Positions 40,641 through 54,154 of a stretch of DNA of 61,667 nt are shown in pieces (position 1 is the first letter of the stretch; every line of letters starts with the position of its first letter). Origin of the DNA: a bacterium (lineage in GTDB: Bacteria; Vulcanimicrobiota; Vulcanimicrobiia; Vulcanimicrobiales; Vulcanimicrobiaceae); assembly GCA_021790935.1 (NCBI GenBank), contig JAJYFL010000014.1, positions 1-61,667 of the forward strand, given 5' to 3'. Under the pieces are notes generated by a model that was not told where the DNA came from, made no database searches, and saw only the letters and a list, made by a program, of their open reading frames with translations. The translations under genes and the position numbers were made by a program.

Positions 40641-41918
40641 ATGGATGAAACGAGCATGCGGCGCGCGATCGAGCGCAAGCGCGAGGGCGAGACGCTCTCA
40701 GGCGGCGACTGGGAGGCGATCGTCGCCGGCTTCATGGCCGGTTCGGTCGACGACGCGCAGATGGCGGCGCTCTGCATGGCCTGCCTCTGGCGCGGCATGA
40801 CCTTCGAAGAGGCTTACGCGTTGACGCGCGCGATGGTCGATAGCGGCGAGACGATCGCGTTCGACGGGCCCGCAACGGTCGTCGACAAGCACAGCAGCGG
40901 CGGCGTAAGCGACATCGTCTCGCTGGTAGCCGTTCCGCTGGCAGCCGCGTGCGGCGTGCGCGTCGCCAAGCTTTCGGGCCGCGCGCTCGGCCATACCGGC
41001 GGCACGATCGACAAGCTCGAAACGATTCCCGGCTTCAACGTGAACCTCTCGATCGACGCGTTCAAGCGGCAGGTCGAGCGCGTCGGCTGCGCGATCGCCG
41101 CGCAAAGCGAGACGCTAGTCCCCGCCGACAAGCGCATCTATCGCTTGCGCGACCACACCGGCACGGTGCCGGTGATGGGCTTGATGGCCGCATCGATCGT
41201 CTCGAAGAAGATCGCCGGCGGCGCGCAGGCGTTCGTCTTCGACGTAAAGACCGGCCGCGGTGGATTCATGCAGGACGCGCGCGCCGCTCGCGAGCTCGCC
41301 GGGTGGCTGGTCGAGATCGCGCGCCGTTTCGGCCGCCGCGCGACCGCATTCGTCACGAACATGGACGAGCCGCTCGGCCACTCCATCGGCACCGGCATCG
41401 AAATAATCGAAGCCCGCAACTTCCTCTCCTGTCATCCTGAGCCTGTCGAAGGACAAGAGCCCCCCGAAGGACGCGAGCACACGCTCGTGCTGCGCATCGT
41501 TGAAGCGATGCTCGAAGCGGCCGGCATCGAGGGCGGCGCAGGCCGCGTGCGCGCCGCGTTGCAGAGCGGTGCCGGATACGAGAAGCTCGTCGAGATGGTC
41601 GAGGCGCAGGGCAGTTCGCGCGCCGCGCTCGAGTCGCTGCACGTTGACGCAAATCCAAGCGTGGTTGCGAGCTCGCGCGCGGGCTGGGTGCGCGCGATGG
41701 ACGTCGTGCGTCTCGGAAACGTCGGCCGCCGTCTTGCCGAACACGACCCGGCCGGCGGTCTGCGCGTCGCCGTGCGCATCGGCGACCACGTCGAACGCGG
41801 CGCGCCCCTCGCCTACGTCTTCGGCACCGATCGCGATGCCGCGCGCTCCCTCGAATCCGCCTTCGAGATCGTCCCCGAAGTTGTCGCCCCCACCCCCGTC
41901 ATCGTGAGCTCGTCGTGA
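40641..41918 (+). CDS. deoA: Pyrimidine-nucleoside (thymidine) phosphorylase
   Basis: A 425-residue enzyme of nucleoside phosphorylase family II. Motifs: VDKHSSGGVSDIVSLVAVPL, AKLSGRALGHTGGTIDKLET, IPGFNVNLSIDAF, YRLRDHTGTVPVMGLMAASI, VSKKIAGGAQAFVFDVKTGR and TNMDEPLGHSIGTGIEIIEA. It cleaves pyrimidine nucleosides with phosphate. The REP-like repeat at 41430 is translated in frame as LSCHPEPVEGQ, a peptide insertion in the C-terminal part. Start at 40641 is preferred; the frame is open up to 40560 but would cross into the opposing gene. Confidence 0.93.
   Translation: MDETSMRRAIERKREGETLSGGDWEAIVAGFMAGSVDDAQMAALCMACLWRGMTFEEAYALTRAMVDSGETIAFDGPATVVDKHSSGGVSDIVSLVAVPLAAACGVRVAKLSGRALGHTGGTIDKLETIPGFNVNLSIDAFKRQVERVGCAIAAQSETLVPADKRIYRLRDHTGTVPVMGLMAASIVSKKIAGGAQAFVFDVKTGRGGFMQDARAARELAGWLVEIARRFGRRATAFVTNMDEPLGHSIGTGIEIIEARNFLSCHPEPVEGQEPPEGREHTLVLRIVEAMLEAAGIEGGAGRVRAALQSGAGYEKLVEMVEAQGSSRAALESLHVDANPSVVASSRAGWVRAMDVVRLGNVGRRLAEHDPAGGLRVAVRIGDHVERGAPLAYVFGTDRDAARSLESAFEIVPEVVAPTPVIVSSS
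41430..41453 (+). repeat. REP-like repeat inside pyrimidine phosphorylase gene
   Basis: GTCATCCTGAGCCTGTCGAA at 41431-41450, followed by GGA, is the widely known bacterial REP-like sequence. It is in frame (peptide CHPEPVEG), so the gene tolerates it as an insertion. Another near-identical copy is at 49427 and degenerate ones in ileS and mfd. Confidence 0.75.
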
Positions 41919-46221: not shown

Positions 46222-47636
46222 TCGGCGTGGCGATCGCAGCGCCGTTGCTGGGCGCGCTTATCGCGCTGGCGTTCCGCGTGCGCGCGCAACGGCAGGCGGT
46301 GCGCATCGCGCTCGCCGTCGCCGCGGCGCTCCTGCCGGTGACGCTCGCCGGCAGCGTCGACGCGCTCTCGCTGCTCTTCGCGGCGCTCGTATCGATCTTG
46401 GGGCTCTTGGCCACGGTCTTCTCCGCCGGAGCGGAATCTCTGGATTGGGGCAGCGGCGAAGCCGTCTGGTCGCGCAAGCCGGTCTACTTCGTTTTGCTCG
46501 GAGCGTTCTGGAGCGCGATGCTGGTGGTCGTGCTCGCCGATAACTTCGCGCTGCTGTGGCTCGGAATCTCGGCGACGACGCTTGCAACGGCCTTCCTCGT
46601 CGGCTTCAGCGGCGAGGCCGCCGCGCTCGAAGCGGCGTGGAAATATCTCGTGCTGTGCAGCGTCGGCATCGCGCTCGCGCTGCTCGGCATCGTCGTGCTG
46701 GGGCACGTTACCATGGCAGCGGGATTGAGCCCACTGCAAGCGCTTTCGTGGACGAGCATCGCCGCGCACGCGCCGGCGACGGCGCTGCCGCTCGCGCGGC
46801 TGGCGACCGCGCTCATGGCGATCGGATTCGCCACCAAAGCGGGCCTCGTTCCCATGCACGCGTGGCTCCCCGACGCGCACTCGAAGGCTCCCGCGCCGAT
46901 CAGCGGGCTGCTCTCGGGTGTGCTCGTTTCGTGCGCGCTCTACGCGATCGTGCGAACGCTCTCCGTCGCTGCGGTACTCGGCGCGGGGCCGGTGATTCAC
47001 ACGCTGCTGCTGGTGCTGGGCTCGCTGTCCACGGTCGTCGCCGGTACGCTGATGCTGAGCCAGCGCGATCTGAAGCGCTTGCTCGCGTACTCGACCGTCG
47101 AACACGCCGGCATCGTCGCGCTGGCGCTGGGTTTCGGGGGCCCGATCGGCCTCTTCGCGGCGCTCTTTCACATCGTCGCCCACGCATTCGCGAAGTCCGC
47201 CGCCTTCTTCGCCGCCGGAATGGTGCAGCGGGAACGGCGAACGACCGAGTTGGGAGCGCTGCACGGGCTCATCTCCACCGGCGCCGGCGGGCGCTTCTTG
47301 CTCGGCGCGATGACCGCCCTCTGCGGCATGCCGCCGTTCGGGCTCTTCATCAGCGAGCTTTTGCTCGTCGCGGCCGGGGTCGCATCGCGGCAGTGGATTC
47401 CGCTCGGGTTCGGTCTGCTCGGCATCGCTCTCGGTTTCATCGCGCTCTCGCGCGCGGCGATCGAGATCGAAGGCGGACGCGCCAAAGCTGCGCCGCAGCG
47501 CCCAGCCACCTCGCGGCTCTCGGCGATCGCGGCCGGGCTCGCGCTCGCCGGCGCTCTGCTCGCGATCGCCGTCCCATGGACGCCGCTCGGAACCGTGCTC
47601 CACGCGACCTCGTCGCGTATCGAAGGAGCGCCGTGA
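46218..47636 (+). CDS. hyfF: Hydrogenase-4 component F (NuoN/L-like)
   Basis: A 472-residue proton-channel subunit. GFATKAGLVPMHAWLPDAHS, KAPAPISGLLSGVLVSCALY, LSQRDLKRLLAYSTVEHAGI, and FHIVAHAFAKSAAFFAAGMV carry the conserved Lys, Glu and His of the antiporter family. HyfF pairs with HyfB in hydrogenase-4. ATGA overlap with hyfE; the hyfG GTG overlaps its stop. Confidence 0.92.
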   Translation: MIGVAIAAPLLGALIALAFRVRAQRQAVRIALAVAAALLPVTLAGSVDALSLLFAALVSILGLLATVFSAGAESLDWGSGEAVWSRKPVYFVLLGAFWSAMLVVVLADNFALLWLGISATTLATAFLVGFSGEAAALEAAWKYLVLCSVGIALALLGIVVLGHVTMAAGLSPLQALSWTSIAAHAPATALPLARLATALMAIGFATKAGLVPMHAWLPDAHSKAPAPISGLLSGVLVSCALYAIVRTLSVAAVLGAGPVIHTLLLVLGSLSTVVAGTLMLSQRDLKRLLAYSTVEHAGIVALALGFGGPIGLFAALFHIVAHAFAKSAAFFAAGMVQRERRTTELGALHGLISTGAGGRFLLGAMTALCGMPPFGLFISELLLVAAGVASRQWIPLGFGLLGIALGFIALSRAAIEIEGGRAKAAPQRPATSRLSAIAAGLALAGALLAIAVPWTPLGTVLHATSSRIEGAP

Positions 47637-49033
47637 ACGGCGTGCACGCTATCGCTGCGGAGCGTTTCGCGGATCGCGTGGAGGCCGAGTGCCTCACCGC
47701 GCTTCCGCTCGGCGCGTACGCGCGCGCCGAGGAGGTGCGCTACCTGTTCCTCGCCGCGAGCGGTCCCTACGCGCTCGCGCACCCGCGCGAGGCGGAGGCG
47801 CCGCTGCGAGCCGTCTCCGGAACGTTTCCGCTCTTCTCGTGGGACGAACGCGAGATGGCGCAAGAGTGGGGCGTGCGCTTCGACGCGCTCCCGGATGCGC
47901 GCCCTCTGCGCGGAACCGCCGGCGAGATGCCGCCGGCGATCGTCGCGCAGGGCGCCGGCCTCATGCGTTTCGTCGTCGGGCCGGTGCATGCGGGGATCAA
48001 CGAGCCGGGGCGGTTCACCTTCAGCTCGGGCGGTGAAACGATCGTGCATCTGGATGCGCAGCTCTCCTACGCGCATCGCGGCGTCGAACGGCACGTCGAG
48101 GGGCTCGGCGCGTTGCAGGCTGCGCCGCTCGTAGCGCGGATCTGCGGCAGTTGCAGCGCCGCGCGCTCGTTCGCGTACGCGCGTGCGCTCGAGCAGCTCG
48201 CCGGAATCGAGCTCGCGCGCGAGGTAGAGCTCGCGCGTCTCGTTCTCGCCGAGTTCGAGCGCATCTACAATCATCTCGGGGATCTGGCCGCGAGCGCCGC
48301 CGGCGCCGGTTGGGGACCCGGCTTTGCTAGCGGTATGGCGCTCAAAGAACGCGCCATACGCCTCTGCCGGCTCGCAGGCGGCCACCGGCTGCTCTTCGAC
48401 GCGATCGTTCCCGGCGGCGTCGGCGCGCAGACGCTGCGCGAACGCCCCCGCATCGCCCGCGAGCTCGCCGATCTCGCGCGCGATATCGAAGCGTACCTGA
48501 CGAGGCTATTCGCCCAATCGTCGACGGTCGCGCGCTGGCAGCGTGCGGGCGTGGTCTCGCGCGAGTCGGCCCACGCGTTCGGCGCCGTCGGCCCCGCACA
48601 TCGCGCATCGCGCGGCGAGATCGACGTTCGAACCTTCGCTCCGTACGGCGCATACCGCGAGTTTGCGGTGCGTATCGCGCACGCTTCGGGCGGCGACTCG
48701 TTCGGGCGCCTTCGCGTGAAGCGCGACGAGATCCGCGAATCGCTGCGCCTGATCGGCGCGGCGCTCGCGGAGATCGGCGATGCCGCGCTGCCGGATCCGC
48801 AGCCGATGGCCGTTCCGGCGGGCGACGCCACCGCGGTGGTCGAGGGGCCGCGCGGCAGCGAGGTTGTAGCGCTTCACACCGGCGGCGACGGGATCCTCAC
48901 GCGGCTGCACGTCATCTCCGCGTCGTACCGCAACTGGCCGCTGGTCGCGCGCGCGATGGACGGCAACATCGTTCCGGATTTTCCGCTCGTCAATAAGAGT
49001 TTCAATCTCTGCTACGCGTGTGCGGACCGATGA
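47633..49033 (+). CDS. hyfG: Group 4 [NiFe]-hydrogenase large subunit (HyfG/HycE)
   Basis: A 466-residue NuoC-NuoD fusion as in HycE. Residues 1-110 are NuoC-like (PLFSWDEREMAQEWGVRF); the rest is the large subunit (HLDAQLSYAHRGVERHVEGL). Both nickel cysteine pairs are kept: RICGSC (C171, C174) and the C-terminal LCYACADR (C460, C463). The His that normally follows the first pair (RxCGxCxxxH) is Arg here, and the C-terminal DPC is NLC, so it is a divergent hydrogenase; retained Cys pairs argue it is not a complex I NuoD. A nearly identical partial copy lies at 50951. Confidence 0.9.
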   Translation: MNGVHAIAAERFADRVEAECLTALPLGAYARAEEVRYLFLAASGPYALAHPREAEAPLRAVSGTFPLFSWDEREMAQEWGVRFDALPDARPLRGTAGEMPPAIVAQGAGLMRFVVGPVHAGINEPGRFTFSSGGETIVHLDAQLSYAHRGVERHVEGLGALQAAPLVARICGSCSAARSFAYARALEQLAGIELAREVELARLVLAEFERIYNHLGDLAASAAGAGWGPGFASGMALKERAIRLCRLAGGHRLLFDAIVPGGVGAQTLRERPRIARELADLARDIEAYLTRLFAQSSTVARWQRAGVVSRESAHAFGAVGPAHRASRGEIDVRTFAPYGAYREFAVRIAHASGGDSFGRLRVKRDEIRESLRLIGAALAEIGDAALPDPQPMAVPAGDATAVVEGPRGSEVVALHTGGDGILTRLHVISASYRNWPLVARAMDGNIVPDFPLVNKSFNLCYACADR

Positions 49034-49437
49034 AGCGCGAGACGTTTCGCAAGTCGCTTGGCGTGCGCCACGTTGCCTGCGGCAGCTGCAACGGCTGCGA
49101 GCACGAGATGAACGCGCTCTCGAACGCGTTTTACGACATCACGCAAGACGGCTACGATATCGTCGCGTCGCCGCGCCACGCCGATATCGTAACGGTGACG
49201 GGCCCGATGACGCCAGCGATGCGCGCCGCAGCCCGCGAGACGCTCGACGCCGTGCCGCGCCCGCGCATCGTCGTCGCGATCGGCGATTGTGCCGCCGGCG
49301 AAGGCCCCTGGTCCGGCGCTCCATCCGCCGGCCCCGGAGCCGGAATCGAGTTACAAGCCACAATCACCGTCCGCGGCTGTCCCCCCACCCCCGAAGAGAT
49401 CCGCGCCGCCCTAAAATCCCTCCCCCTGTCATCCTGA
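49030..49437 (+). CDS. hyfI: Group 4 [NiFe]-hydrogenase small subunit (HyfI/HycG)
   Basis: A 135-residue NuoB-like subunit holding the proximal 4Fe-4S cluster. Cluster ligands: CNGCEHEM (C20, C23), the Cys in VAIGDCAAG and the Cys in TVRGCPPTPEE. An extra Cys pair CGSC lies just before. It is far shorter than E. coli HyfI (about 250) but near minimal NuoB size. Its stop codon is provided by the REP-like repeat at 49427, so the C-terminus may have been trimmed by repeat insertion. No ferredoxin-like subunit (HyfH) follows. Confidence 0.9.
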   Translation: MKRETFRKSLGVRHVACGSCNGCEHEMNALSNAFYDITQDGYDIVASPRHADIVTVTGPMTPAMRAAARETLDAVPRPRIVVAIGDCAAGEGPWSGAPSAGPGAGIELQATITVRGCPPTPEEIRAALKSLPLSS

Positions 49438-49450
49438 GCCTGTCGAAGGA
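49427..49450 (+). repeat. REP-like repeat at the end of hyfI
   Basis: GTCATCCTGAGCCTGTCGAA (49428-49447) followed by GGA, a near-identical copy of the repeat at 41430. The TGA in CCTGAG ends hyfI, so the repeat overlaps the last codons. Confidence 0.75.
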
Positions 49451-49487
49451 CTAGTCAACTAGGCTGAAAGTGTGATACGATCGCTCC

Positions 49488-49727
49488 GTGAAGAGAGTCG
49501 GGGTATTTGAGGGCAAGACACACTTCTCGGCGCTGATCGAAGAGGCCAAGAACGGTGAAACAATTATCGTTACGAAGAACGGTCAGGCGGTTGCGCAGAT
49601 TGGCCCCGTAAGCTTAAAGGCGTCAATCAATACCGCCGAAGGGGCGATGAAGCGGATCCTCTCGAGTAAGGCGACGCTCGGTAAAGCCACCATCCGACAG
49701 CTCATTGAAACGGGCCGCCGCTATTAG
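49488..49727 (+). CDS. Phd/YefM-type antitoxin of a VapBC-like pair
   Basis: A 79-residue antitoxin. VGVFEGKTHFSALIEEAKNG, then ETIIVTKNGQAVAQIGPVS is the Phd fold (N-terminal DNA-binding half); the C-terminal half (AMKRILSSKATLGKATIRQL) should contact the toxin. GTG 49488 lies 6 nt after TACGAT, giving a leaderless message. It overlaps the PIN toxin gene by 23 bp. Confidence 0.85.
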   Translation: MKRVGVFEGKTHFSALIEEAKNGETIIVTKNGQAVAQIGPVSLKASINTAEGAMKRILSSKATLGKATIRQLIETGRRY

Positions 49728-50139
49728 GCCCGCCGCCGTACTCGACGCGTCCACCGCACTGTCGTGGCTCTTTGAAGACGAGCGCGATGAGGAAGCGATA
49801 GCGATGGCAAACGCCGTGGTCGTGAATGGTGCGATCGTACCGCCCTTGTTTCGTTGGGAGATACAGAATGCGCTCTTGGCGGCCGTTCGTCGGAAACGCA
49901 TTTCGCTCGATCGAGCTACGGAAAGCCTGGCCGCCCTTGACGAGTTGGGCATTGCGGTGGATGGGTTTATCTTGACGTCGCCGCTTGCAACTGGCTTAGG
50001 ATTCACCCAACGATTCGGATTGACGGCGTACGACGCAGCGTATTTGGAATTGGCCGTGCGCCGTTCCGTGCCGCTTATGACGCGCGACGAGAAGTTGAAG
50101 CGGGCCGCTACCGATCTGCGTCTCCTATGGAAGCCGTGA
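49705..50139 (+). CDS. vapC: PIN-domain toxin (VapC family)
   Basis: A 144-residue PIN ribonuclease. The acidic active site is formed by the first Asp in VLDASTALSWLFED, Glu in FRWEIQNALL, and the Asp pair in GLTAYDAAYLELAVRR and LMTRDEKLKRAA. Family members cut tRNA or rRNA and are blocked by the antitoxin made just before. The only start upstream of the fold is TTG 49705, inside the antitoxin gene. Its end overlaps the HD-GYP gene on the other strand by 15 bp. Confidence 0.87.
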   Translation: MKRAAAIRPAAVLDASTALSWLFEDERDEEAIAMANAVVVNGAIVPPLFRWEIQNALLAAVRRKRISLDRATESLAALDELGIAVDGFILTSPLATGLGFTQRFGLTAYDAAYLELAVRRSVPLMTRDEKLKRAATDLRLLWKP

Positions 50140-50745
50140 CTGGTACGTGCTCTCGGGGCGTGCCTTCAATGGGCTGGTTTCGATCATTCTTGCGAAGACT
50201 TCAAAGCATTTGGGATCGCTAAACGCCCCACACTCGGCATCCATGATCGCCATCGTCTCTTCGTGAGAGGCGGCCGGACGATAGACTCTCGTTTGCGTGA
50301 GAGCATCGTAGCAATCGGCGACGAGAAGAATCCTTGCCCATAGAGGGATCTCATCGCCCTTCAGGCCATCCGGATAGCCGGAGCCGTCGTAATGTTCGTG
50401 ATGGTGCCGCACCGCCTTGACGATCTCGACGGCCGCTCCTGCCTTTTCACGAGAGAGATTTGATTGCGCTGCGATGATGCGCTCTCCACGCAGGCTATGG
50501 CTTTTTATGATCTCCCATTCTTCGGCGTCCAGCTTTCCGGGGTTTAGGAGGATCCTATCCGGGATGCCGATCTTTCCGACGTCATGGACGAAGCCGGCTT
50601 CTCGCAACGGTACGAGCGCGATCTCCGGCAAGTTCATCGCCTGGCCCAACGCTTCAGCCAGGTAACCGACGCTGAAATCATGCCGCGCCGTGTGCTCGTC
50701 TCTCTCTTCGGTGGCGACATGAATCGCTCGATCTACGTAATGCAT
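50125..50745 (-). CDS. HD-GYP domain phosphodiesterase-like protein
   Basis: A 206-residue protein almost wholly made of an HD-GYP domain: the metal site AGFVHDVGKIGIPDRILLNP, LNPGKLDAEEWEIIKSHSLR, VRHHHEHYDGSGYPDGLKGD and ILLVADCYDALTQTRVYR. HD-GYP enzymes hydrolyse cyclic di-GMP. All HD and GYP residues are present (GSGYPDG). No sensor or receiver domain is attached, and the frame does not extend further upstream, so either it is a short stand-alone enzyme or its N-terminal part was lost. Confidence 0.85.
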   Translation of the reverse strand: MHYVDRAIHVATEERDEHTARHDFSVGYLAEALGQAMNLPEIALVPLREAGFVHDVGKIGIPDRILLNPGKLDAEEWEIIKSHSLRGERIIAAQSNLSREKAGAAVEIVKAVRHHHEHYDGSGYPDGLKGDEIPLWARILLVADCYDALTQTRVYRPAASHEETMAIMDAECGAFSDPKCFEVFARMIETSPLKARPESTYQSRLP

Positions 50746-50832
50746 CGCGATACTCCGTCGGAATGCCCGGCAGGATGACGTATTCTACCGCACTCGTGCA
50801 CGAGCCCTCCGTCCGTGGTCTATTTCGAGGAC

Positions 50833-50950
50833 GCGGAGCGTTCTATCTCGGCGACGAGGTAGAGTGGGCGGGCTTTTACTTCGTCGTAGATGCGGCCGAT
50901 ATATTCGCCGAGGATGCCGATGCCGATGAGCTGGATGCCGCCGAGGAAGG
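50833..50950 (-). pseudogene. Copied 3' fragment of the GT2 gene
   Basis: 118 bp matching 52498-52615 with about two substitutions; the minus frame reads [20 protein letters not shown], then [17 protein letters not shown], the same as the C-terminus of the glycosyltransferase at 52470. It joins directly, without spacer, to the hyfG copy. Not a functional gene. Confidence 0.85.
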
Positions 50951-51424
50951 CGGCATGGCGCTCAAGGAGCGCGCCATGCGCCTCTGCCGGCTCGCAGGCG
51001 GCCACCGGCTGCTCTTCGACGCGATCGTTCCCGGCGGCGTCGGCGCGCAGACGCTGCGCGAACGCCCCCGCATCGCGCGCGAGCTCGCCGATCTCGCGCG
51101 CGATCTCGAAGCGTACCTGACGAGGCTATTCGCGCAATCGTCGACGGTCGCGCGCTGGCAGCGTGCGGGCGTGGTCTCGCGCGAGTCGGCGCGCGCGTTC
51201 GGCGCCGTCGGCCCCGCACATCGCGCATCGCGCGGCGAGATCGACGTTCGAACCTTCGCTCCGTACGGCGCATACCGCGAGTTTGCCGTGCGTATCGCGC
51301 ACGCTTCGGGCGGCGACTCGTTCGGGCGCCTTCGCGTGAAGCGCGACGAGATCCGCGAATCGCTGCGCCTGATCGGCGCGGCAGCGAGGTTGTAGCGCTT
51401 CACACCGGCGGCGACGGGATCCTC
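50951..51424 (+). pseudogene. Partial copy of hyfG with 94-bp deletion
   Basis: Matches 48331-48898 with roughly ten substitutions in 474 bp. The frame from the ATG at 50955 reads [20 protein letters not shown] onward, like HyfG residues 235 and up, until a 94-bp deletion between two GCGCGGC repeats (48756-48762 and 48850-48856 in hyfG) shifts the frame and stops it (RL, then TAG). Lacks both nickel cysteine pairs. Non-functional duplicate. Confidence 0.88.
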
Positions 51425-51430
51425 TAGGCG

Positions 51431-52402
51431 TTACGGTTGCGGGGTCGCCGGCGGAACGAAGCCGGGGCCGACGGTGGGCGGTCGCCACCCGTTCGCCGAC
51501 GGTGCTCCGAGAACGATGTGTCGTTTGTCGCGGATCAGCGAGAACTGCAGAGCGTTCGCGAAGCGCGCGACGAGATCGGCAAACTGCCCAACCGTCGCGC
51601 ACGAGCGGCCGTTCACCGCGGTGACGATGTCCGCGCGCCGTAGGCCTGCGGAGGCTGCGCGCCCGTTCGGGTCGATCTCCGCGACGAAGATGCCGCGGAT
51701 TGAGTACGCTGCAGCGTGCGCGTGAAAAAGCCGTAAGAACTCAGGCGTTATCGTCCATGCCGCGATGCCCATCGAGGGCACGGGGACGAGCCAGGCGCGC
51801 AGGTTCGCCCGTGCTTGCGGCGTGTCCCAGGAGGGCGTTGAAGGCGCCGCCGTTGCGGGCGCCGACGCAGTCGCTTGATTCGGCCGTACGCTCTGCGAAG
51901 TGTGCAGCGGCGGCGCCGTGAGTGTCACGCGATAGGATCGCCCCGGTCGCAAAATGGTGACGCGGCCGATTGCAACCTTCGCCATGCCGGAATCGACGAC
52001 CAGCCAGTAGGTGAATCCGGCCGGCGCGCAGAGACTCGTGTGAATCTCGCTCCCCATGCCTTCCGCCGGCTGGTAAAACGGGCCGCCGGAATGACTCTTA
52101 AGAAATCGCGAGAGATTGTCGCTCAGGGGAAGCAGCTCAGCGTTGTTCACCCATTCGCCGTAGCCGCCGTACGACGACGGAAAGCGAATCGTCGCCAAGA
52201 GCATCGACCAGCCGGCCGGAAGCGGATGACAGCCGCCGAAATTGCCGCTCTGCAATGCGTGCATCATGACGCGCCTTGCCGCCGCCGCTGCATCGGCGTT
52301 CATCCCGGCCGCCGTCGCCGGAGCCACCTGCGCGGCCACCGGCGGGGCCAAGAGTAGCGAAAACGTTGCCGCGAGGAGCACACTGAAGGGTCTGTTGAGC
52401 AT
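51431..52402 (-). CDS. Secreted PDZ-domain protein
   Basis: A 323-residue exported protein: signal VLLAATFSLLLAPPVAAQVA, an N-terminal domain of unknown kind (SGNFGGCHPLPAGWSMLLAT, FTYWLVVDSGMAKVAIGRVT), a Pro/Ala/Thr-rich linker, and a C-terminal PDZ domain (GIFVAEIDPNGRAASAGLRR, ADIVTAVNGRSCATVGQFAD). No protease residues are seen, so it may bind other envelope proteins. It ends just after the chimeric duplicate and follows the GT2 gene. Confidence 0.75.
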   Translation of the reverse strand: MLNRPFSVLLAATFSLLLAPPVAAQVAPATAAGMNADAAAAARRVMMHALQSGNFGGCHPLPAGWSMLLATIRFPSSYGGYGEWVNNAELLPLSDNLSRFLKSHSGGPFYQPAEGMGSEIHTSLCAPAGFTYWLVVDSGMAKVAIGRVTILRPGRSYRVTLTAPPLHTSQSVRPNQATASAPATAAPSTPSWDTPQARANLRAWLVPVPSMGIAAWTITPEFLRLFHAHAAAYSIRGIFVAEIDPNGRAASAGLRRADIVTAVNGRSCATVGQFADLVARFANALQFSLIRDKRHIVLGAPSANGWRPPTVGPGFVPPATPQP

Positions 52403-52469
52403 GAGAACCTCCCAAGCGCCGGTTGAAGAGGCGCCATGAAGCGAGCATTCGACGGTTCGCTTCGCCGGC

Positions 52470-53465
52470 CTATCGCCCGCCGGCGATGGCAGGGGGGGCG
52501 GAGCGTTCTATCTCGGCGACGAGGTAGAGTGGGCGGGCTTTTACTTCGTCGTAGATGCGGCCGATGTATTCGCCGAGGATGCCGATGCCGATGAGTTGGA
52601 TGCCGCCGAGGAAGAGGACGGTGACGATCGTCGAGGCCCAGCCGCGTTCGAAGCCGGGGATGCCTTTGATATCGAAGAGGCGCACGACGATGACGAAGAT
52701 GCCGTAGAGAAAGGCGAAGGTGCTCGCGATGAAACCGAGATAGGACGCAAAGCGCAGCGGCACGTCGGAGAACGAGGTGATGCCGTCGATCGCGAACGAG
52801 AGCATCTTCGAAAACGGGTACTTCGTGGTGCCCGAACGGCGCTCGTCGCGATCGTACTCGATGCCGGTTTGATTGTAGCCGATCCAACTCACCATGCCGC
52901 GCAAGAAACGATGGCGCTCGCGCGAGCGCTTGAGCGCCTCGACGACGCGCCGGCTCATCAGGCGGAAGTCACCGGCGTCGACCGGTATCGCGACGTTGGT
53001 CAAACGCTTGATGGTGCGGTAGAAGAGCCGCGCCGTCGCGAGTTTGAACGCGCTCTCGCCTTTGCGCGAGCGCCGCACGGCGTAGACGACATCGTATCCG
53101 GCACGCCAGCGCTCGACGAACCGCTCGATGAGTTCCGGCGGATCCTGCAGATCGCCATCCATCAGCACGACGGCGTCGCCGCGCGCGGCGTCGATGCCGG
53201 CGGTGGCGGCGAGCTGGTGGCCGAAGTTGCGCGAGAGGTTCAGCAGCACCAGATTGGGGCGCCGGAGCAGTTGCTCGCGGATGCGCGCGAGCGTGCCGTC
53301 GCGGCTGCCGTCGTTGACCAGCACGATCTCGTACGACGGGTTACCGGGTAAGCGTTCGACGATGCCGGCGATGCGCTCGAGCAACGGGTCGACGTTCGCC
53401 TCCTCGTTGAAGAGCGGTACGACGATGCTGAGCGCGATGCTCTCCTGCGGTGGGGCAGCTACCAT
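52470..53465 (-). CDS. GT2 polyprenyl-phosphate glycosyltransferase (DPM1/GtrB-like)
   Basis: A 331-residue enzyme. The GT2 domain shows LSIVVPLFNEEANVDPLLER, YEIVLVNDGSRDGTLARI, LLNLSRNFGHQLAATAGIDA, and the metal site VVLMDGDLQDPPELI; then VDAGDFRLMSRRVVEAL. Two C-terminal membrane segments (LGFIASTFAFLYGIFVIVV and the [16 protein letters not shown] helix) are typical of bactoprenol-glucosyl or ArnC-type enzymes. It makes a polyprenyl-phosphate sugar, which could feed the GT-C enzyme at 37849. Part of its 3' end is copied at 50833. Confidence 0.93.
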   Translation of the reverse strand: MVAAPPQESIALSIVVPLFNEEANVDPLLERIAGIVERLPGNPSYEIVLVNDGSRDGTLARIREQLLRRPNLVLLNLSRNFGHQLAATAGIDAARGDAVVLMDGDLQDPPELIERFVERWRAGYDVVYAVRRSRKGESAFKLATARLFYRTIKRLTNVAIPVDAGDFRLMSRRVVEALKRSRERHRFLRGMVSWIGYNQTGIEYDRDERRSGTTKYPFSKMLSFAIDGITSFSDVPLRFASYLGFIASTFAFLYGIFVIVVRLFDIKGIPGFERGWASTIVTVLFLGGIQLIGIGILGEYIGRIYDEVKARPLYLVAEIERSAPPAIAGGR

Positions 53466-53557: not shown

Positions 53558-54154
53558 ATGAAGAGCCGTAAAATCATACCCGTCGTTGCGTTGGCCGTTA
53601 TCGCGGCCGGCATCGCAGCGCTGGAGTTGTACTCCTGGTCGCAGCGCAATCTCTCGGACCCGCCTGCGGCAAGCGTTGCCGCGGGGCCGACGGCGTTGCC
53701 CAGCGTGCCGCCGAGCGCTGCGCCCACGAGTGCTCCACCCGCGAGCGCTCCACCCACGAGCGCGCGGCCGACGAGCGCCCCGACCGCGGCTCCCGCTGCG
53801 GCGACCCCGGCTACGCCGGTCGCCACGGCGGCGCCCGCCAGCCAACCGGCCGTCCCGATGGTTGCGCCGCAGGCTCCGCCGAAGATTACCGGCATCTCGC
53901 TCAGCACGAGCGTCGCCCACCCGGGGCAGATCGTCTCGGGGACGGTCACGACCTCGTCGAACGTCGCCAGCGTCGTCGCGCGCATCGCGGGCTACGCGCA
54001 TCCCCTCGCCAAAGTCGCCGTCGGCCGCTTCGTGCTGACCTACCAGGTGCCGAACCTGCCGCCGTTTCTGCGGCGCACCTACACCATCGAGGTGATCGCG
54101 CGCAACACCGCCGGTGCCGCGGTAACCGGCGGCATCCCAATCACGATACGTTAG
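53558..54154 (+). CDS. Membrane-anchored protein with Pro/Ala-rich linker
   Basis: A 198-residue protein: one N-terminal transmembrane helix (IIPVVALAVIAAGIAALELY), a low-complexity stalk of SAPPTSA/PTSAPTAAP-like repeats (residues 40-105), and a C-terminal beta-rich domain of about 90 residues (PPKITGISLSTSVAHPGQIV onward), probably Ig-like. Extracytoplasmic by topology; function unknown. Good AGG site before the ATG. Divergent from the GT2 gene. Confidence 0.72.
   Translation: MKSRKIIPVVALAVIAAGIAALELYSWSQRNLSDPPAASVAAGPTALPSVPPSAAPTSAPPASAPPTSARPTSAPTAAPAAATPATPVATAAPASQPAVPMVAPQAPPKITGISLSTSVAHPGQIVSGTVTTSSNVASVVARIAGYAHPLAKVAVGRFVLTYQVPNLPPFLRRTYTIEVIARNTAGAAVTGGIPITIR

What the first reader, a model, noticed from the sequence alone, without database searches (positions are those of the whole stretch)
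50833..51424. Chimeric segment fused from copies of two neighbouring genes
118 bp identical (bar about two bases) to the 3' end of the GT2 gene (52498-52615) is joined, with no spacer, to 474 bp copied from the middle of hyfG (48331-48898, about ten substitutions). The hyfG copy has lost 94 bp exactly between two GCGCGGC repeats. Both source genes lie within 3 kb, one on each side, and each copy keeps the orientation of its source. This is a clear record of a template-switch or tandem-duplication event, followed by insertion or retention of the TA/HD-GYP block, or of a former second hydrogenase copy.
Basis: seen in the sequence. Interest (0 to 1): 0.75.

Follow-up and report, generated by a model that had tools for sequence, protein, structure and literature searches.

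The report
Relic of a tandem gene duplication
A 592-base scar in a bacterial genome was pasted together from pieces of two neighbouring genes, apparently when the chromosome was miscopied beside what looks like a newly arrived gene; it is a well-preserved but ordinary kind of mutation and probably does nothing.

Summary
50833-50949 is a 117-bp copy (2 mismatches) of the GT2 3' end (52498-52614). It is joined without spacer or microhomology to 50950-51424, a copy of hyfG 48330-48898 (10 mismatches in 433 bp, none in the last 42) that lost 94 bp between two GCGCGGC repeats.

One same-genus genome, G001, shows the probable starting order: hyfG-hyfI-TA-HD-GYP-GT2, without the chimera and without the PDZ-domain gene that now lies between chimera and GT2. 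New in the window are the hyfG piece and the PDZ gene, bracketed by the duplicated GT2 tail.

A same-strand backward jump from GT2 into hyfG (3,450 bp in G001 coordinates) is the signature of a tandem-duplication junction. Copy 2 was largely replaced by the PDZ gene, in the same or a later event. Ku was not found in 3 of 3 genus genomes, which favours template switching over end joining. Few private changes suggest the event postdates the split from G001; hyfG trees weakly say otherwise and settle nothing. No function is indicated. Reads could not be checked.

The parts
47633..49033 (+). hyfG-like gene (complex I 49-kDa / NiFe hydrogenase large-subunit family), source of the larger piece
   Evidence: Pfam PF00346 E 7e-33; self-BLAST
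48330..48898 (+). source stretch of the hyfG copy
48756..48762 (+). first GCGCGGC repeat bounding the 94 bp missing from the copy
48850..48856 (+). second GCGCGGC repeat
49488..50139 (+). Phd/YefM antitoxin and PIN toxin genes, also present in G001 (not part of the insertion)
50125..50745 (-). HD-GYP-type (HD domain) protein gene; in G001 it follows GT2 directly
   Evidence: Pfam HD_5 E 3e-32
50833..50949 (-). copy of the GT2 3' end (115 of 117 identical to 52498-52614), continuous with the HD-GYP side as in G001
50950..51424 (+). copy of middle hyfG (48330-48898 less 94 bp); the loss shifts the frame and the ORF ends at 51395
51376..51382 (+). single GCGCGGC left at the deletion joint
51425..52497 (-). 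1,073-bp stretch without a match in G001, carrying a PDZ-domain protein gene (51431-52402, -; signal-peptide-like start judged by eye); only DNA copy in the own genome
52470..53465 (-). GT2 glycosyltransferase gene, open throughout; its last codons differ from those of G001
   Evidence: Pfam PF00535 E 6e-31
52498..52614 (-). GT2 3' end, right-hand copy of the 117-bp direct repeat

Best explanation
The segment is a non-functional scar of a same-strand backward template switch, that is, the junction of a tandem duplication. It formed in the window's own lineage in the block hyfG-hyfI-TA-HD-GYP-GT2. Synthesis running through HD-GYP into the GT2 3' end jumped back to mid-hyfG (3,450 bp in G001 coordinates) without homology: the joint is shown, the polymerase step is inferred. 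Either in the same event by further switches, or later by an insertion-deletion in the second copy, the rest of that copy (hyfG 3' part to HD-GYP, 2,764 bp in G001 coordinates) was replaced by a PDZ-domain gene, and the sequence re-entered GT2 at its tail (inferred). This left the 117-bp GT2 tail as a direct repeat around the insert. A 94-bp deletion between 7-bp repeats in the hyfG copy (slippage, inferred) put it out of frame. The segment has no evident function now.
For: Exact joints and orientation. Of 29 GT2 loci held from other genera, 0 show HD-GYP, hyf or PDZ genes in the up to 1.5 kb flanks held, several cut short at contig ends (one search handed out loci for only part of its 89 matching genomes). 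The PDZ gene is patchy: 10 of 99 family genomes, own included, and 3 of 38 genera at E<=1e-60, and neither of the two other genus members. It is single-copy in the own genome. The fragment has 6 private changes in 592 bp (4 in hyfG, 2 in GT2) against 133 of 1330 fourfold sites (10.0%) differing between window and G001 over the hyf genes, so it looks younger than the split (Poisson P 1e-7 at 5% per site, 0.001 at 3%, the second near half of hyfG's own 19 of 298, computed with 599 positions, 7 counted twice). Ku was not found in 3 of 3 genus genomes, the control ringing in Bacillus subtilis, so classical end joining is less likely. In E. coli the authors of PMC3161906 (abstract and passages seen) explain complex duplication events by repeated template switching.
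Against: Maximum-likelihood trees of the hyfG stretch place the fragment outside window-hyfG plus G001 (support 80 with 18 sequences, 71 with 4), which would make it older than the split. Three of its four private hyfG bases are the commonest outgroup base, although the nearest outgroup G093 sides with the window at one of them (48573). The AU test on 4 sequences rejects none of the three topologies (p 0.34, 0.67, 0.32). Of the 6 private changes only 1 goes towards A/T, not what one expects of a free pseudogene. All 40 sequenced E. coli amplification junctions in PMC3161906 had microhomology; this joint has none. Only one relative, 87% complete, shows the simpler order. Read coverage over the joints could not be seen.
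Confidence: 0.78

Rival explanations
1. The window's order is the older one: the chimera and the PDZ gene were present in the common ancestor, and G001 lost them by recombination between the two 117-bp GT2 tails, which would restore exactly its order.
For: The 117-bp direct repeat makes such a deletion a single step. ML trees put the fragment outside window+G001 with 80/71 support.
Against: Only 6 private changes in 592 bp against 10% fourfold divergence of the two genomes, unless gene conversion with hyfG and GT2 kept it young. The PDZ gene is missing at E<=1e-60 from both other genus members and from 89 of 99 family genomes.
Confidence: 0.13
2. Assembly artefact: two strain variants or chimeric reads were joined in assembly.
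For: All 15 related records are metagenome-assembled genomes, so the unnamed own genome may be one too; the hyfG copy differs from hyfG by 10 of 433 bases, in the range of strain variation; no reads are available here.
Against: The joint at 50949/50950 has no shared bases on which an assembler could cross over. The fragment has its own substitutions and a 94-bp deletion absent from the window's hyfG and from G001's. The own genome is 98.78% complete, 0.12% contaminated, in 33 contigs.
Confidence: 0.06
3. A transposable or integron-type element carrying the PDZ gene inserted and made the 117-bp repeat as its target duplication.
For: The insert is bracketed by a direct repeat, and the PDZ gene is patchy.
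Against: No inverted repeat joins the two ends of 51425-52497 among the 25 longest pairs shown of 40 (15 not shown). Pfam finds only PDZ domains in the one gene of the stretch. 117 bp is far longer than the target duplications of insertion sequences (recalled). The hyfG piece inside the repeat is not explained.
Confidence: 0.03

Closest known systems
Short-junction tandem duplications of bacteria (class name recalled; E. coli amplification junctions in PMC3161906, abstract and passages seen)
   Same: Head-to-tail same-strand joint between two sites a few kb apart with too little homology for recombination; most of one copy absent now.
   Different: Not an intact duplication: most of copy 2 is gone and another gene stands in its place; the joint has 0 bp microhomology.
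Replicative template switching / MMBIR with templated pieces (model as in passages of PMC3161906)
   Same: Pieces of nearby sequence in original orientation; re-entry slightly upstream of the departure point gives the 117-bp repeat.
   Different: Joint without microhomology; no donor of the PDZ piece found in the own genome.

Membership tests
Tandem duplication relic | Joint of unit end to unit start on the same strand | tested here: met
   GT2 52614 joined to hyfG 48330, same orientation
Tandem duplication relic | A relative with the un-duplicated order | tested here: met
   G001, one relative only
Tandem duplication relic | The whole unit present twice, at least at first | tested here: inconclusive
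   Only the two ends of the unit are found twice; the interior of copy 2 is absent
MMBIR / template switch | Microhomology at the joints | tested here: not met
   0 bp at 50949/50950; the PDZ joints cannot be assessed without the donor. The 94-bp deletion does lie between 7-bp repeats.
MMBIR / template switch | Several templated pieces in one event | tested here: inconclusive
   GT2, hyfG and PDZ pieces present; one event or several cannot be told
NHEJ product | Ku in the genome | tested here: not met
   PF02735 in 0 of 3 genus genomes; control rings in 1 of 14 named genomes, B. subtilis
Transposon insertion | Terminal inverted repeats | tested here: inconclusive
   None in the 25 of 40 inverted-repeat pairs shown
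Transposon insertion | A transposase or integrase in the insert | tested here: not met
   The one gene of the stretch gives PDZ domains only in Pfam; other ORFs of the stretch were not scanned

The most novel reading that the evidence does not exclude
The scar has gained a role. GT2, the PDZ gene and HD-GYP all lie on the minus strand, and the hyfG piece lies antisense between PDZ and HD-GYP, with no terminator-like site found in 50700-52600. Read-through would make an RNA complementary to about 475 nt of hyfG mRNA, a newly born trans-acting antisense regulator of the hydrogenase-like operon. Alternatively, the open 210-codon frame 50763-51395, whose hyfG part from 50952 still matches Pfam Complex1_49kDa (E 2e-23), is a newborn chimeric gene.
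Probability: 0.03. Interest if true: 0.65.

Novelty: new member of a known kind. Interest (0 to 1): 0.17.

Why it matters
It is a readable example of how a gene may enter a bacterial chromosome together with a tandem-duplication scar, with a close relative showing the probable state before. The organism is probably one of the Eremiobacterota, a group with little genetics (inferred: 9 of 15 related records are named Eremiobacterota or WPS-2). Otherwise it is an ordinary structural mutation.

Tried and rejected
Insertion of the TA/HD-GYP block: rejected, since G001 has the block already.

A second full hydrogenase copy: not indicated. The own-genome DNA search with 50600-51700 shows no other copy of that hyfG stretch, and the surviving joint starts mid-gene.

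Dating by outgroup bases: at GT2 sites 52566 and 52596 both states occur (18 G/12 A and 11 T/19 C among 30 sequences, G001 included). hyfG trees favour the older reading weakly and the AU test does not decide.

A remnant of the G001 repeat next to GT2 (52485-52497): rejected as not significant, 35 of 2000 shuffles and 111 of 816 other G001 pieces score as high or higher.

PDZ donor site: in G028 the gene lies next to a uracil-DNA-glycosylase-like gene (name recalled, not scanned). The own genome has that neighbour on contig 33 but its only PDZ copy is in the window. The neighbour gene was not found near the PDZ genes of G025 and G083. So no donor site is shown. G002 has only a distant PDZ match (39% over residues 194-323).

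Viral contigs: no exact junction match and no PDZ relative.

Papers: three searches (listings seen) and the abstract and passages of one paper.

Full report
What is there. The window's self-comparison and base-by-base comparison confirm the finding with small corrections. 50833-50949 copies the GT2 3' end 52498-52614 with 115 of 117 bases the same. 50950-51424 copies hyfG 48330-48898, with 423 of 433 bases the same before the deletion, 42 of 42 after it, and 94 bp missing between two GCGCGGC. At 50949/50950 neither source shares the partner's flanking base: 0 bp microhomology. Eight of the ten hyfG differences lie at third codon positions of hyfG (binomial P 0.003), so many of them probably arose in a working gene. 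The own genome (G000, 33 contigs, 98.78% complete; the window is on contig 19) holds no further strong DNA copy of the segment or of the PDZ stretch.

The relative. Of the two other held genomes of the genus, G001 has the locus and G002 has no match at E<=1e-8 to 48330-53465. G001's contig has the length (40,825) and the match of JAKAPQ010000004.1, MAG YF1.bin76; 9 of the 15 loci of that scan are titled Eremiobacterota or WPS-2. In G001 the order, read in the window's direction, is hyfG, hyfI, a 754-bp stretch with an XRE-like ORF (name recalled, not scanned), antitoxin, PIN toxin, HD-GYP, GT2. The window's 49445-50949 aligns in one piece from the TA genes through HD-GYP into the GT2 of G001 (118 mismatches and 76 gap positions in 1,581 columns), and the window's GT2 aligns to that same place from the other side. 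Thus the window has the GT2 tail twice, with hyfG piece and PDZ gene between. Both hyfG pieces align to one hyfG in G001. In G001, HD-GYP follows GT2 on the same strand; in the window the PDZ gene, also on that strand, and the antisense hyfG piece separate them. GT2's last residues differ (...SAPPAIAGGR in the window...SAPPK in G001).

Wider family. Among 29 GT2 loci held from other genera (L045, L046, L050, L067-L092), 28 keep at least one of the two neighbours on the 5' side of GT2 (the ORFs at 53558 and 54185), and 0 show HD-GYP, hyf or PDZ genes in the up to 1.5 kb flanks held, some shortened by contig ends. Not every matching genome was handed out as a locus (89 of 99 genomes match). The PDZ gene is found at E<=1e-60 in 10 of 99 family genomes, own included, in 3 of 38 genera, the best other match being 81% identical in G028; G002 has only a distant one.

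How it arose. A joint of GT2(52614) to hyfG(48330) on one strand is the head-to-tail joint of a tandem duplication whose unit measures 3,450 bp in G001 coordinates. From the second copy, 2,764 bp (G001 coordinates) are missing and the PDZ stretch stands instead. One complex event with several template switches, or a duplication followed by a replacement, fit equally well. Ku was not found in 3 of 3 genus genomes, so a replicative route is favoured; this is inference. In E. coli, repeated template switching is the authors' explanation for complex events; all 40 junctions sequenced there had microhomology, unlike this one, and 16 of 40 lay in REP sequences (PMC3161906, abstract and passages).

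Age. In the 433-bp stretch, private changes are 6 (window hyfG), 4 (fragment) and 9 (G001); the GT2 piece has 2 private changes. Fourfold-site divergence of window and G001 is 133 of 1330 over six hyf genes and 19 of 298 in hyfG. A neutral relic older than the split should carry far more than 6 changes. Against this, outgroup-rooted trees weakly prefer the fragment as the deepest branch (80 and 71), and the AU test cannot decide. Gene conversion or a donor from another strain could explain the conflict. I hold the post-split reading as more likely, not proven.

Function. None is indicated. The 94-bp loss shifts the frame and the ORF ends at 51395, though its hyfG part still matches the Complex1_49kDa family. 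No sigma-70-promoter-like or terminator-like site was found in 50700-52600. An antisense RNA to hyfG is possible but untested.

Noticed in passing
window 48334-48358: Four of the six changes private to the window's hyfG cluster in 25 bp. 48334 (T; C in copy and G001) and 48358 (A; G in copy and G001) are partners in a short inverted repeat right beside the duplication breakpoint (stem found at 50953-50979 in the copy): a paired change, as hairpin-templated mutation would give.
   Followed up: partly
window 50935-50956: The fusion made an inverted repeat (8-bp perfect stem, 6-nt loop) whose right arm begins one base before the joint 50949/50950; such stems gave 33 hits in the whole window, so this may be chance.
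   Followed up: partly
window 41430-41453 and 49427-49450: REP-like motif TGTCATCCTGAGCNTGTCGAAGGA: 9 exact copies in the own genome, 8 in G001, 4 in G002, 0 of the reversed control. The G001/window length differences at hyfI/TA and HD-GYP/GT2 lie at partial or near copies of it.
   Followed up: partly
L037 (G001) between hyfI and the TA genes: A 754-bp stretch with an XRE-like ORF (name recalled) that the window lacks.
   Followed up: no
window 47633-49033: The HyfG-like protein scores as complex I 49-kDa and only below cut-off as NiFe hydrogenase, so whether it is a hydrogenase is open.
   Followed up: no
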